Assembly (NCBI RefSeq): GCF_001551835.1
Contig: NZ_LODL01000002.1
Location: 62,001 to 126,000 of the forward strand
Length of the DNA stretch: 64,000 nt
Reading direction: 5' to 3'
Source: Dechloromonas denitrificans
Lineage (GTDB): Bacteria > Pseudomonadota > Gammaproteobacteria > Burkholderiales > Rhodocyclaceae
Both the position numbers and the translations under genes were made by a program. Each line of letters opens with the position of its first letter. The first letter of the stretch is position 1. The notes beneath the pieces are model-generated. The model was not told the origin of the DNA. It searched no databases and saw only the letters and a list, made by a program, of their open reading frames with translations. Below are positions 5,156 to 64,000 of this stretch, piece by piece.

Positions 5156-6048
5156 CTACTGCCGCCAAGAGCGAACTGATCACCGTTCGCGACTATCTCC
5201 GTTACGCCGTCAGCCGCTTCAACGCGGCCGGCCTGTTCTTTGGCCACGGCAACGACAACGCCTGGGACGAAGCGGTTTACCTGACGCTGCACACTCTGAA
5301 TCTGCCACTCGACCGTCTTGAGCCCTTCCTCGACGCCCGCCTGCTGCCGCATGAGCGCGAAATGCTGCTCGATATTTACAGCCGGCGCAGCCAGGACCGC
5401 CTGCCGGCCGCTTACCTGACCCATGAAGCCTGGCTCGGCGAGCACCGTTTCTATGTCGACGAACGCGTCATCGTGCCGCGCTCCTTCATTGCCGAACTAC
5501 TGCAGGAACAACTGACGCCGTGGATCGACGATCCCTGGGCCGTCGAGTCGGCGCTCGATCTATGCACCGGCTCCGGCTGCCTGGCCATCCTGACCGCCCT
5601 CGCCTTCCCGGAAGCGCAGGTTGATGCGGTCGACCTGTCAAAAGATGCAATTTCCGTTGCCGAGCGCAATGTCGCCGACTACCACCTGACCGAGCGCGTC
5701 GAGCTCATCCAGTCCGACGCCTTCAGCCAGCTCGATGGCAAACGCTACGACCTGATCATCTCGAATCCGCCCTACGTCAATGCCGAATCGGTCGCCGCCC
5801 TGCCGCCGGAATACCTGCATGAGCCGGAAATGGCCCTGGGTTCCGGCGACGACGGCCTCGACTTCACCCGCATCATCCTGCGCGAAGCCAAAAAGCATCT
5901 GACGGCGAACGGCATTCTCGTCGTCGAAATCGGCCACAACCGCGACGAACTGGAAGCCACCTACCCGACCCTGCCCTTCACCTGGCTGGATACTGCGGCG
6001 GGCGACGAATACGTCTTCCTGCTCCACGCCGCCGACCTGCCCGACTGA
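5152..6048 (+). CDS. prmB: Ribosomal protein L3 N5-glutamine methyltransferase
   Basis: A 298-residue class I SAM methyltransferase. The SAM-binding motif is DLCTGSG (136-142) and the N5-glutamine methyltransferase signature is NPPY (205-208). The N-terminal helical domain and length fit PrmB, which methylates Gln150 of ribosomal protein L3, rather than PrmC, whose usual partner prfA is absent here. The start is the ATG overlapping the dapE stop. The product is cytoplasmic. The choice of PrmB over PrmC rests on the N-terminal sequence and gene context, so it is slightly less certain than the reaction class. Confidence 0.88.
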
Positions 6049-6056
6049 TCGGCAAA

Positions 6057-6081
6057 GCGAAGCGGGCCAGGCCCGCTTCGC
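6057..6081. terminator. Strong hairpin between convergent genes
   Basis: A perfect 12-base inverted repeat (GCGAAGCGGGCC and its complement) starts 8 bases after the prmB stop and is shared with the convergent lipoprotein gene. No T-run follows on either strand, so it may be an mRNA 3' stabiliser rather than a classical intrinsic terminator. Confidence 0.6.
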
Positions 6082-6102
6082 GATATCGGCGAGCTCGACC
6101 AG

Positions 6103-61624: not shown

Positions 61625-63582
61625 TTCACCTGGTAATCGAGTTTGAGGCGGGTCTGGAGCTTGCGCGCCTGGCGGAAGGATTCCTTCAGGATGCGGCGAT
61701 CCAGCTCGTTCAGCGTATCCGGGTTGATCAGGTTGTCGCCCTGCGTGCCCGGCTCGCCTTCCAGATACTGGTGCTGCAGGCGCAGCAACTGGATGAAGTC
61801 GAGGCCTTCGAGGATGGCATTGATTTCCTCGTCGCGAATCGACAGCCGCTTGGAGGCCAGACGCAGGCGCTGCACCGAGTTGGTGTTATGGACGCCGGTG
61901 GCCAGCGCGTAGATGCGCGCGACATCGACAAAGATACGCGAGCCGTATTTCTTGAGGTCGATCTTGCCCGGCTGGTCCGGCTCGAGATCGGTCAGGAAAT
62001 CGCGGATCTTGCCGAGCGGCGGTTCGACATCGAGCGCATTGTGCGCCATGGCGCGCAGGAACATCGGGTTGGACGAAGTCTGGGCCAGCAGGTGGCGGCG
62101 CATCGACTCGGCCAGTTCGATCTTGCCGAACAGCGGCCGGAAGTCGAAGAAGATGGTCGCATTGAGCAGCGCTTCCGGCTGCGGCACGCGGATCCAGTTG
62201 CTGAACTGATCGCGCCACTCGTCCAGAGTCAGGCACCACTGCGGGTTGCTGGCCATGATGTTGCCCTTGCACAGCGGGAAGCCGCAACGGTCGAGATCCT
62301 TGTTGACGTCCAGGGCATAGGCCAGAAAACGCTGGCGCAGCGCGTCGACCGCGTCCGTGTCGGGGCAGGCGAAAACGATGCCGTTATCCTGGTCGGTACT
62401 GAAGGTCTGCTCGTCGCGGCCCTCCGAACCGAAAGCCAGCCAGGCCCAGTCGATGCCCTCGAAATTGTGCTTGTCGAGATTGAGCTGGATGACGCGGCGG
62501 GTCAGCGCATCGTTCAAGGCCGAAATGAACTGGGTCAGTTGCTCGGCACCGACGCCTTGGGCCAGCATGTTGAAGGCCAGTTGCCGGACATCGGCCGCCG
62601 CGTGCTGCAGCGCCTCGACGTTGTGCGCCCCTTCGATGGACTGGCGTATCTGGCGCAGGCCGACTCGTTGCAGCGCAAACAGGTCGCGCTCGGAAACGAC
62701 GCCGGTCAGCTTGCCCTCGGCATCGGTCACCAGCACGTGGCGAATACCGTGGGTGGCCATGGCCAGCATGGCGTCGTAGGCCGTGGCATGTTCTTCCAGC
62801 TTGAACGGGTTGGCCGACATCGCCTGGCTGATCGGCACGTCGTGCGGCAGATCGGCCAGCACGACCCGGTCGAGCAGGTCGGATCGGGTAAAAACGCCGA
62901 CCGGCTGGCGGTCTTCGCCGGCGATGACGAGCGAGCCGACCCCGGCCTGCGACATTTTTTCCAGCGCCGCCCGCAGCGGCGTCTCGGGCGCCACCGACAC
63001 CGGCGAGCGCGAGCCGATGCCGGCCAGCGGCGAATTCAGCGTCTGCTGTTCGCTGGCCCGCTGGGCGAACTGCAATTGCAACTGGCGCCTCGACTGGTCG
63101 AGCAGGCTGGCGATGTATTGCGTGCAAAACAGGTTGAATTCCGGACTGCTCGCCATCAGGCGCAGGAAATCCTCGGCCGGCAACTGGTAGCAGAAGGTGT
63201 CTTCGACCGCCGTGTAGGTATTGGTCGATGGCCGGCCGGCGGTCACCGCACCGATTGGAAAGCTCTCCCCGGCTCCGAGGCTGAGGATGGAATATTCGGT
63301 CACCGTCACCTCGCCGGCCTGGCGCGCCTGCACCTTGCCGGATTCGATCAGGTAGAAGAAGCGGACGTTGCCGGCAGCCGGCCCGACAATTTCGCTGCCG
63401 GCCGGGTGAAAGGCCAGTTGCGCCTTGTCGGCAAAAACCTGCAGCGCCTCGGCACCCATCTTGTCGAAGGGCGCGTGATTCTTTAAAAAGGCCAGGGTAT
63501 TGCCGGCGACGCGACGGCGCCCTTCCTGGCGCAGCGAGGTTTCCAGCGGATTCATGGTCGCTTGTTCTGTTTGTGTATTCAC
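61621..63582 (-). CDS. Cyclic-nucleotide/CBS/DUF294 nucleotidyltransferase-like regulator
   Basis: A 653-residue protein. Domains: cNMP-binding (about 35-150), a pair of CBS domains (about 190-310), a nucleotidyltransferase-like DUF294 core (FGSEGRDEQTFSTDQDNGIVF, the GlnD-type Gly-Ser and Asp-x-Asp) and a substrate-binding helical C-terminal domain. The GTG start has AAGAGG five bases upstream. It likely senses a nucleotide and modifies or regulates the symporter of its operon. A tandem paralogue follows at the window edge. Confidence 0.87.
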   Translation of the reverse strand: MNTQTEQATMNPLETSLRQEGRRRVAGNTLAFLKNHAPFDKMGAEALQVFADKAQLAFHPAGSEIVGPAAGNVRFFYLIESGKVQARQAGEVTVTEYSILSLGAGESFPIGAVTAGRPSTNTYTAVEDTFCYQLPAEDFLRLMASSPEFNLFCTQYIASLLDQSRRQLQLQFAQRASEQQTLNSPLAGIGSRSPVSVAPETPLRAALEKMSQAGVGSLVIAGEDRQPVGVFTRSDLLDRVVLADLPHDVPISQAMSANPFKLEEHATAYDAMLAMATHGIRHVLVTDAEGKLTGVVSERDLFALQRVGLRQIRQSIEGAHNVEALQHAAADVRQLAFNMLAQGVGAEQLTQFISALNDALTRRVIQLNLDKHNFEGIDWAWLAFGSEGRDEQTFSTDQDNGIVFACPDTDAVDALRQRFLAYALDVNKDLDRCGFPLCKGNIMASNPQWCLTLDEWRDQFSNWIRVPQPEALLNATIFFDFRPLFGKIELAESMRRHLLAQTSSNPMFLRAMAHNALDVEPPLGKIRDFLTDLEPDQPGKIDLKKYGSRIFVDVARIYALATGVHNTNSVQRLRLASKRLSIRDEEINAILEGLDFIQLLRLQHQYLEGEPGTQGDNLINPDTLNELDRRILKESFRQARKLQTRLKLDYQVN

Positions 63583-63597
63583 GACAACCTCTTCTTC

Positions 63598-64000
63598 TCA
63601 GAGTGCATAGTTTAGCTTGAGGCGCAATTGCAGTCGCCGTGCCTGTTTCAGCGACTCGCGCAGGATCGCCCGATCGACCTCGTTCAACTCGGCCGGCTTC
63701 AGGGCGTAACCGGCGGCCTTGCCCGCCGTGGCGTCAGCCATCTGTTGCTGCAGGCGCAGGCGCAAAATGTGCGAAAAAGCACCGTCGACCGCGGCAATCT
63801 CGTCAGCCTGCAAGCCGGCGGCGGCGCCGGCCTGGTGCAGGCGCTGGCTCGAATTGACGGCCGGCACGCCGGCCGCCAGCGCGAAAATACGCGCCGCATC
63901 GACAAAGATCCGGCTGCCGAATTTTTTCAGATCCAGCTGCCCTTCCGCATCGAGCGCCACCTCGCCGCGAAAGTTGAGCGGCGCCTCGGCCTGCACGGCG
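63598..64000 (-). CDS. DUF294-type regulator, C-terminal part
   Basis: The frame is open to the window end; 133 or more residues are visible. The sequence aligns with the C-terminal domain of the 653-residue neighbour: GKIDLKKYGSRIFVDVARIYALATG there and LDLKKFGSRIFVDAARIFALAAG here, and both end in a KQARRLQLRLKLNY-type helix. It is thus a tandem paralogue 15 bases upstream in the same operon. A GTG at 63996 exists but would remove the catalytic domain, so the gene very probably starts outside. Confidence 0.8.
   Translation of the reverse strand, partial: AVQAEAPLNFRGEVALDAEGQLDLKKFGSRIFVDAARIFALAAGVPAVNSSQRLHQAGAAAGLQADEIAAVDGAFSHILRLRLQQQMADATAGKAAGYALKPAELNEVDRAILRESLKQARRLQLRLKLNYAL

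What the first reader, a model, noticed from the sequence alone, without database searches (positions are those of the whole stretch)
5624..63794. Over-represented bipartite motif CTGCGGTCGAC-N15-AWWT, resembling a DNA-uptake signal sequence
Seen directly: the 11-base core occurs eight times exactly (25619-, 36356+, 38529-, 38867+, 43834-, 49883+, 53732-, 59910+). With roughly 62 % GC I estimate less than 0.1 copy expected in 64 kb on both strands. In all eight, position +16 after the core is A, and 30 of 32 bases at +16 to +19 are A/T. Copies with one core mismatch keep the same tail at the same distance: 5624+, 15885-, 35685-, 41377-, 51123+, 61328-, 63784-. An 8-base part of the core at 3381 and 4509 also has A at +16. 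Several sites have a further A-run at about +6 to +10. Sites lie in unrelated genes, in different frames and on both strands, so codon use is not the cause. A GC-containing core followed by A/T-rich patches about one and two helical turns away is the architecture of Haemophilus/Actinobacillus uptake signal sequences; Neisseria uses a different short repeat. I know of no such signal described for Rhodocyclaceae. A nucleoid or chromosome-organising protein site is the main alternative. pilU in the same window is compatible with uptake but does not prove it.
Basis: partly seen in the sequence, partly recalled or inferred. Interest (0 to 1): 0.85.

Follow-up and report, generated by a model that had tools for sequence, protein, structure and literature searches.

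The report
DNA-uptake signal repeat in Dechloromonas
A short DNA signature repeated about a thousand times in the genome of this bacterium and several relatives looks like the self-recognition tags that two other bacterial families use to take up DNA of their own kind, which would make this a third family with such tags, although no uptake experiment has been done.

Summary
The core CTGCGGTCGAC occurs 8 times in the window and 390 times in the genome (198+/192-), against 4 for the reversed motif. The dialect-neutral form GCGGTCRAC-N16-WWW occurs 1007 times against 18. The genus is Azonexus/Dechloromonas.

Of 76 genus genomes, 31 are rich (294-1680 copies), 20 intermediate and 25 poor. 235 genomes of 61 other genera of the family hold at most 24. 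In five rich genomes CGGTCRAC and the A/T tail are constant while the 5' edge varies.

Marks of known uptake sequences: the excess lies in perfect inner-core matches; no leading/lagging bias in one complete chromosome; sites mostly ungapped against motif-poor orthologues; over-represented outside ORFs, evenly spaced in two stretches; absent from a 50-kb integrase-bearing island.

Pasteurellaceae signals also have GCGGT then two A/T tracts. A 2025 paper calls Pasteurellaceae and Neisseriaceae the only families known to do this. ComEC and a ComP-family pilin occur in rich and poor genomes alike, so the receptor is unidentified. Uptake is untested.

The parts
25598..25633 (-). uptake-signal-like site, exact 11-base core at 25619-25629 (matrix 34.7 bits)
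36352..36387 (+). site, exact core at 36356-36366 (26.6 bits)
38508..38543 (-). site, exact core at 38529-38539 (24.6 bits), between ORFs
38863..38898 (+). site, exact core at 38867-38877 (21.6 bits)
43813..43848 (-). site, exact core at 43834-43844 (34.1 bits), with both A/T tracts
49879..49914 (+). site, exact core at 49883-49893 (22.6 bits)
53711..53746 (-). site, exact core at 53732-53742 (20.7 bits)
59906..59941 (+). site, exact core at 59910-59920 (25.6 bits); overlaps a reverse site at 59915 (palindromic pair)
59894..59929 (-). reverse partner of the overlapping pair, core 59915-59925, one mismatch (18.7 bits; A/T at +16 to +18, C at +19)
5620..5655 (+). site, one core mismatch (31.1 bits)
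7613..7648 (-). site, one core mismatch (22.7 bits)
8425..8460 (-). site, one core mismatch (23.0 bits)
13123..13158 (+). site in the lon gene, TTGCGGTCAAC (27.1 bits); inside the region of the orthologue comparison
15864..15899 (-). site, one core mismatch (23.6 bits)
35664..35699 (-). site, one core mismatch (26.2 bits)
51119..51154 (+). site, one core mismatch (31.3 bits)
61307..61342 (-). site, one core mismatch (29.3 bits)
63763..63798 (-). site, one core mismatch (28.3 bits)
41356..41391 (-). site, one core mismatch (16.3 bits)
30997..31032 (-). site, CTGCGGTCAAC core, one mismatch (17.5 bits)
21321..21356 (+). weaker-core site found by the refined matrix (25.9 bits)
4324..4359 (-). weaker-core site found by the refined matrix (21.8 bits)
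3372..3407 (+). weaker-core site found by the refined matrix (21.0 bits)
48055..48090 (+). weaker-core site found by the refined matrix (20.7 bits)
1055..1090 (+). lowest-scoring class, 17.7 bits; chance hits are possible at this level
50651..50686 (+). lowest-scoring class, 17.2 bits
45933..45968 (-). lowest-scoring class, 16.7 bits
39502..39537 (+). lowest-scoring class, 16.2 bits
27714..27749 (+). lowest-scoring class, 15.8 bits
2835..4022 (+). PilT/PilU-family type IV pilus ATPase gene (machinery compatible with DNA uptake; carries the 3372-3407 site)

Best explanation
The repeats are the genomic uptake signal sequences of a DNA-uptake system in the genus Azonexus/Dechloromonas. A receptor at the cell surface, most likely a minor type IV pilin, binds the core (constant part CGGTCRAC, with a 5' edge that differs between species). 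The A/T tract about 16-20 bases downstream, and the weaker one near +8, are proposed to help the duplex bend or melt as it enters the outer-membrane pore. DNA carrying the signal is taken up, passed through ComEC and recombined. Because fragments that happen to carry a better match are taken up and recombined more often, point mutations that create the motif spread and the genome fills with copies. Lineages that stop taking up DNA, or change receptor, lose the copies by mutation. Shown here: the motif, its excess, inner-core strength, distribution, substitutional origin, dialects and patchy presence on the tree. Inferred: receptor binding, DNA bending, uptake bias and molecular drive.
For: Copy number: 390 exact 11-mers against 4 reversed; 1007 GCGGTCRAC-N16-WWW against 18. 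Consensus strength: in 464 kb of this genome CGGTCRAC with the W tail occurs 134 times exactly against 11 in one Markov copy, but 121 against 122 with one mismatch; in 500 kb of G039 264 against 7, and 113 against 107. PMC1626085 (passages) describes a strong consensus with perfect copies outnumbering singly mismatched ones as a puzzling attribute shared by USS and DUS, unlike regulatory sites. No polarity: 198+/192- genome-wide; 159 leading and 151 lagging over 25 stretches of the G039 chromosome, P 0.69, arms assigned by GC skew. Not insertions: 786 of 854 aligned rich/poor pairs are ungapped and 18 of these keep the site, whereas 990 of 1428 ungapped rich/rich pairs keep it and the core is more conserved than its flanks (0.878 against 0.791). 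23 of 159 sites lie outside or across ORF ends against 7.45 % of bases, P 0.0017; spacing more even than random in both stretches tested, P 0.014 and 0.0016. A 50-kb integrase-bearing stretch with copper-efflux genes has none. Dialects differ at the 5' edge of the core in five genomes. Rich and poor lineages alternate on the tree. The genome has an uninterrupted ComEC frame (851 aa), a PilT/PilU ATPase, a GspH/FimT-type and a ComP-family minor pilin.
Against: No uptake experiment exists. comEC does not separate rich from poor: it is in 51 of 51 good-quality genomes. The own FimT relative does not follow the motif: G009 (20 copies) keeps 70 % identity, while strong carriers fall to 25-30 % or, in five (G729, G039, G031, G008, G037), have no match at E 1e-5. 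No pilin group was found in all six rich and none of the five poor genomes compared. G008, very rich in motifs, shows an in-frame stop in its comEC match, and the rich but 74 %-complete G021 has no match. In this genome raw perfect inner-core copies (134) barely exceed singly mismatched ones (121); only the comparison with expectation is clear. The full 11-mer is loose: 42 of 159 matrix sites match it exactly. dprA, comEA, comF and pilQ were not looked for.
Confidence: 0.82

Rival explanations
1. The sites bind an intracellular chromosome-organising or nucleoid protein (a MatP-, SlmA-, KOPS- or Chi-like role), and the excess reflects selection for that binding.
For: The motif is dispersed, conserved in position among rich genomes, evenly spaced in two stretches and absent from one acquired island, as a chromosomal architecture site could be.
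Against: No leading/lagging bias, and no ori-ter gradient to the eye, over 25 stretches of the complete G039 chromosome. The excess is in perfect inner-core matches with none at one mismatch, unlike the relaxed consensus of regulatory binding sites described in PMC1626085 (passages). Whole clades of the genus lack it, and the 5' edge changes between species.
Confidence: 0.11
2. The repeat is the remains of a small mobile or copying element, or of a spreading inverted repeat.
For: High copy number and overlapping palindromic pairs (six in 464 kb) could suggest copying.
Against: 786 of 854 alignments of rich-genome sites with poor-genome orthologues have no gap in the 42-base window (lon region only); outside about -4 to +22 the composition is near background; most sites are inside ORFs (136 of 159).
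Confidence: 0.02
3. The repeat is a restriction-modification or other DNA-modification target, or a codon and composition by-product.
For: The core contains the palindrome GTCGAC; frames inside genes are unequal.
Against: The A/T tail 17-19 bases away; sites on both strands relative to genes (73 same, 63 opposite); the excess over Markov copies of order 3 and 4; no excess in 235 genomes of other genera of the family.
Confidence: 0.03

Closest known systems
Pasteurellaceae uptake signal sequence (USS; Hin type AAGTGCGGT, Apl type ACAAGCGGT)
   Same: GCGGT in the core; two A/T-rich tracts on the 3' side about a helical turn apart; many copies on both strands; excess of perfect copies; origin by substitution; dialects that differ at the 5' edge of a constant GCGGT (PMC12616744 introduction; PMC1626085 passages and section 7).
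   Different: Here the core runs on 3' as GCGGTCRAC, so the first A/T tract lies roughly 7 bases further from GCGGT (my estimate); tract centres are about 10 apart (12 in Hin type); the common A of ANNNGCGGT is not in place; the host is a GC-rich betaproteobacterium; no comNOPQ-type locus was looked for.
Neisseriaceae DNA uptake sequence (DUS, e.g. GCCGTCTGAA; receptor ComP)
   Same: Betaproteobacterial host; dialects; overlapping pairs with dyad symmetry occur in some species (PMC3630211 passage); a ComP_DUS-family minor pilin (PF16732) is encoded.
   Different: DUS is a continuous short motif without flanking A/T motifs and with a CTG inner core; the sequences are unrelated. The PF16732 pilin here is also in poor genomes.
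KOPS and Chi (recalled, not compared by sequence)
   Same: Short non-palindromic motifs dispersed around the chromosome.
   Different: Both are strand-biased with replication (recalled); this motif is not.

Membership tests
Genomic DNA uptake sequences (USS/DUS class) | Hundreds to thousands of dispersed copies far above expectation | tested here: met
   390 against 4 and 1007 against 18 reversed; 159 matrix sites against 5 in an order-4 Markov copy of 464 kb, in-sample
Genomic DNA uptake sequences (USS/DUS class) | Strong consensus: perfect copies outnumber singly mismatched ones | tested here: met
   Inner core with tail: exact 134 (expected 11) and one mismatch 121 (expected 122) in G000; 264 (7) and 113 (107) in G039. 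In G000 the raw margin is small, and the full 11-mer is loose: 42 of 159 exact.
Genomic DNA uptake sequences (USS/DUS class) | No strand or replication polarity | tested here: met
   (replication test in G039 only)
Genomic DNA uptake sequences (USS/DUS class) | Sites arise by substitution, not insertion | tested here: met
   786 of 854 alignments ungapped, lon region only
Genomic DNA uptake sequences (USS/DUS class) | Over-represented outside genes, though many copies are in genes | tested here: met
   23 of 159 outside or across greedy ORFs against 7.45 % of bases
Genomic DNA uptake sequences (USS/DUS class) | Scarce in recently acquired DNA | tested here: inconclusive
   One 50-kb island without sites; two further long gaps (23 and 17 kb) were not annotated, so this rests on one case
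Genomic DNA uptake sequences (USS/DUS class) | Dialects with a conserved inner core | tested here: met
   Five genomes: CGGTCRAC and tail constant, 5' edge variable. The search was seeded with GCGGTCRAC, so dialects outside it would be missed.
Genomic DNA uptake sequences (USS/DUS class) | Competence machinery encoded | tested here: inconclusive
   ComEC in 71 of 76 genus genomes, PilT/PilU and minor pilins, but ComEC and the ComP-family pilin are the same in poor genomes; other competence genes not searched
Genomic DNA uptake sequences (USS/DUS class) | A receptor that tracks the motif | tested here: inconclusive
   None found among the pilins recovered from 11 genomes
Genomic DNA uptake sequences (USS/DUS class) | DNA with the motif is preferentially taken up | not testable with these tools
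   needs a wet experiment
Pasteurellaceae USS | Inner core GCGG(T) followed by two A/T-rich segments | tested here: met
   with shifted spacing and a weak first tract; in G039 the first G is weak
Pasteurellaceae USS | Common core ANNNGCGGT in a Pasteurellacean genome | tested here: not met
   The conserved A is six bases before GCGGT; the host is Azonexus/Dechloromonas
Neisseriaceae DUS | Continuous motif of up to about 13 bases with CTG core and no A/T tail | tested here: not met
   definition from PMC12616744 introduction

The most novel reading that the evidence does not exclude
A third bacterial family has independently evolved self-DNA uptake signals, and has converged on the Pasteurellaceae design (a GCGGT core followed by two A/T tracts one turn apart, on the same side). 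This would mean that the design is dictated by a shared physical step, such as pilin binding to the core and kinking of the A/T tracts at the outer-membrane pore, rather than by ancestry. The genus, with about 30 rich, 20 intermediate and 25 poor species and several forms of the core's 5' edge, would let gain, change and loss of uptake specificity be studied step by step.
Probability: 0.5. Interest if true: 0.92.

Novelty: new variant of a known kind. Interest (0 to 1): 0.88.

Why it matters
PMC12616744 (2025; [quoted passage not shown] A third, independent case in environmental bacteria gives a comparison that two cases cannot: which features of uptake signals recur. It predicts that motif-rich Dechloromonas/Azonexus species (studied for perchlorate reduction and wastewater treatment; recalled) are or recently were naturally transformable, and it gives the tag that should make DNA enter. 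It also offers a genus with graded gain and loss in which a receptor can be sought by comparison.

Tried and rejected
Receptor hunt. The own FimT-type pilin was searched in 76 genus genomes and its identity does not follow the motif. N-methylated pilins of ten other genomes (five rich, five poor) plus the own 14 were compared; for G035 and G729 only part of the listed pilin places was fetched, and the frames were picked by a regular expression that can miss or double-count some. No group was found in all six rich and none of the five poor genomes. A PF16732 ComP_DUS pilin is in all 11 genomes, so it is a candidate without support from co-occurrence.

comEC as a discriminator failed: in 71 of 76 genomes; the five without a match are 70-89 % complete.

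k-mer search for other dialects in three motif-poor genomes: G016 and G022 gave no convincing dispersed repeat; the top words of G050 came mostly from one coding repeat. Another dialect at lower density is not excluded (75-100 kb each).

Orthologue test on scattered stretches gave too few alignments and was replaced by the lon region. IMG/VR scan with a strict pattern: 0 hits, weak evidence only.

Rejected readings: mobile element, polar segregation motif, modification target (see rivals).

Errors: the first logo script failed because minus-strand loci are not turned; it was redone.
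Full report
What was checked. The tail claim also holds: A at +16 in eight of eight, 30 of 32 A/T at +16 to +19. The window is contig 2, 62001-126000, of a 4.24-Mb draft genome in 41 contigs.

Genome-wide. The exact core occurs 390 times, 198 and 192 by strand, against 4 for the motif read backwards. In 43 exact sites from 464 kb (the window plus 400 kb taken) A/T is 88, 95, 100 and 88 % at +16 to +19, with a further A-rich patch at about +6 to +10 and a preference for A at -4 and T at -2; beyond about +21 the composition is near background. Iterative refinement of a matrix on the same 464 kb gave 159 sites at 14 bits or more, where one order-4 Markov copy gave 5; the counts are in-sample. 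A fixed pattern, which was not fitted to the whole genome, gives the same picture: GCGGTCRAC-N16-WWW occurs 1007 times against 18 reversed. At one site per 2.9 kb the whole genome would hold roughly 1450 sites (extrapolation).

Who has it. A strict pattern scanned over the 84,980-species collection found 22 stretches, all in records titled Dechloromonas, Azonexus or Azonexaceae (the tool may leave out records near the window's own genome). G274 is probably D. hortensis: its contig 33 has the same length as a record of that species, and its lon groups with the window's. In 76 genomes of the genus the dialect-neutral pattern gives 31 genomes with 294-1680 copies, 20 with 47-265 and 25 with 9-42 (class limits are mine). 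In the family 235 genomes of 61 other genera have at most 24; for the exact 11-mer 373 genomes of other genera of the family have at most 22, and 297 genomes outside the genus drawn from the order at most 21.

History. On a lon tree of 61 of the 76 genomes (27 rich, 15 intermediate, 19 poor), rich genomes occur in many parts of the tree and the poor label needs 7 changes, at least 4 forced by well-supported branches. Of the other 15 genomes, 8 had no lon match at the cut-off and 7, most with partial matches, were not fetched. The plainest reading is an old presence in the genus with repeated loss; repeated gain is not excluded, 17 of 58 inner branches are drawn open, and recombination of lon was not tested.

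Dialects. Matrices refined separately in five rich genomes all keep CGGTCRAC and the A/T tail, but the 5' edge differs: CTG in G000, YTG in G051, CG in G054, YYG in G030 and only weak purines in G039. The ratio of the exact 11-mer count to the dialect-neutral count runs from 0.02 (G039) to 0.42 (G003) among 26 rich genomes for which both counts exist. Pasteurellaceae dialects too differ at the 5' side of a constant GCGGT (PMC12616744, introduction).

Consensus strength. With the tail required, the inner core occurs 134 times exactly in 464 kb against 11 in a Markov copy, while one-mismatch forms are at expectation (121 against 122); in 500 kb of G039 264 against 7 and 113 against 107 (one Markov draw each). 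PMC1626085 (passages) describes many more perfect than singly mismatched copies as a puzzling attribute shared by USS and DUS and unlike sites for regulatory proteins. In raw numbers this holds for G039 and only barely for this genome; the outer positions c1 to c3 are looser.

Distribution. In the complete G039 chromosome, 25 stretches of 20 kb hold 159 sites in the leading and 151 in the lagging orientation (arms assigned by GC skew, which changes sign between 2.0 and 2.2 Mb; P 0.69), with no gradient to the eye. In the own 464 kb 136 of 159 sites lie in ORFs, 73 along and 63 against the gene; 23 lie outside or across ORF ends, against 7.45 % of bases (P 0.0017), 9 of them between convergent ORFs. 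ORFs were chosen by a greedy length rule, not by a gene finder. Spacing is more even than random in the window (P 0.014) and in the first 60 kb of the same contig (P 0.0016); these are the two stretches tested. Contig 5 instead has gaps of 50, 23 and 17 kb, where about 15.5 kb would be the longest expected. Ten proteins from the middle 40 kb of the 50-kb gap were scanned: a CusS-like kinase, a CusB/CusF-like and an outer-membrane efflux protein, two heavy-metal P-type ATPases, three of other or unknown function, one without a match, and a phage-type integrase. I read it as an acquired copper-resistance island. The other two gaps were not annotated.

Origin of sites. Around lon, site density is 0.345 per kb in 27 rich, 0.104 in 15 intermediate and 0.010 in 19 poor genomes. 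Of 854 alignments of a rich genome's site with a poor genome, 68 are gapped inside the 42-base window and 18 of the 786 ungapped keep the site. With intermediate genomes 29 of 499 are gapped and 167 of 470 keep it. Among rich genomes 115 of 1543 are gapped, 990 of 1428 keep it, and the core is more conserved than the flanks (0.878 against 0.791); towards poor genomes it is less so (0.719 against 0.813), which in part reflects choosing sites in the rich genome. Pairs are not independent. So sites arise and vanish mainly by substitution, as PMC1626085 (section 7 read) concludes for Haemophilus.

Machinery. ComEC matches occur in 71 of 76 genus genomes and in 51 of 51 good-quality ones, rich or poor. 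The own genome has 14 N-methylated pilin-like proteins, among them a GspH/FimT-type one and, next to it, one in Pfam's ComP_DUS family PF16732; PF16732 pilins are also in the ten other genomes compared, five of them poor. The window carries a PilT/PilU-family ATPase. ComEC and the pilins do not separate rich from poor, so the receptor is open. The competence genes may serve non-specific uptake in motif-poor species, or be relics; this was not tested.

Mechanism proposed. A minor pilin with sequence preference binds the core; A/T tracts with centres near +8 and +18 ease bending or melting; ComEC imports DNA; recombination of fragments with better matches accumulates sites. These steps rest on analogy with USS and DUS.

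Known or new. Searches of the paper library for the core string (one unrelated paper), for uptake-sequence terms with Rhodocyclaceae or Accumulibacter (none) and for Dechloromonas with natural transformation or DNA uptake (five and four papers, judged from the listing; only the D. aromatica genome paper PMC2907700 was opened, and its one passage on DNA uptake concerns polyphosphate) showed no report of such a signal. Two broader searches (20 of 218 papers listed; 15 of 71) show no title that claims uptake sequences in another family; these were seen as listings. The library lacks most subscription journals and holds no preprints. The resemblance to the Haemophilus type (GCGGT then two A/T tracts) may be convergence or partly chance: a five-base word in a GC-rich core is not rare.

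Noticed in passing
L348 (G044:C1:2217500-2221000) 427-1197 and 1345-3138; G044:C1 from 2218607 to 2251157: In G044 comEC is interrupted: the N-terminal frame stops near the start of the Competence domain, a 597-aa large serine recombinase frame begins about 150 bases on, and the next comEC match lies about 32.5 kb away. G002 shows the same split about 33.7 kb apart; the G018 and G019 matches begin at the same domain position. This suggests an integrative element that uses comEC as its site; the inside was not read and the other genomes' ends were not fetched.
   Followed up: partly
G000:C5:231668-281964 (L071-L074): 50-kb stretch with copper-efflux genes (CusS-like, CusB/CusF-like, outer-membrane efflux protein, P-type ATPases) and a phage-type integrase, GC 56.1 %, with no uptake-like site.
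   Followed up: partly
G000:C5:96215-119327 and 200351-217138: Two more stretches (23 and 17 kb) without sites, longer than expected by chance; contents not examined.
   Followed up: no
L113 (G050:C3) about 4878-6950: Coding repeat with a 48-base period (GGCGGCTCGG...), perhaps a repetitive surface protein.
   Followed up: no
window 59910-59925; six such pairs in 464 kb: Overlapping head-to-head pairs of the core, offset by 5 bases, similar to the dyad pairs reported for some Neisseriaceae DUS (PMC3630211 passage).
   Followed up: partly
G008:C10:856383-856889 and C17:32473-32772: The comEC match of the motif-rich G008 is split over two contigs with one in-frame TAG; a recent loss of competence or an assembly fault.
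   Followed up: no
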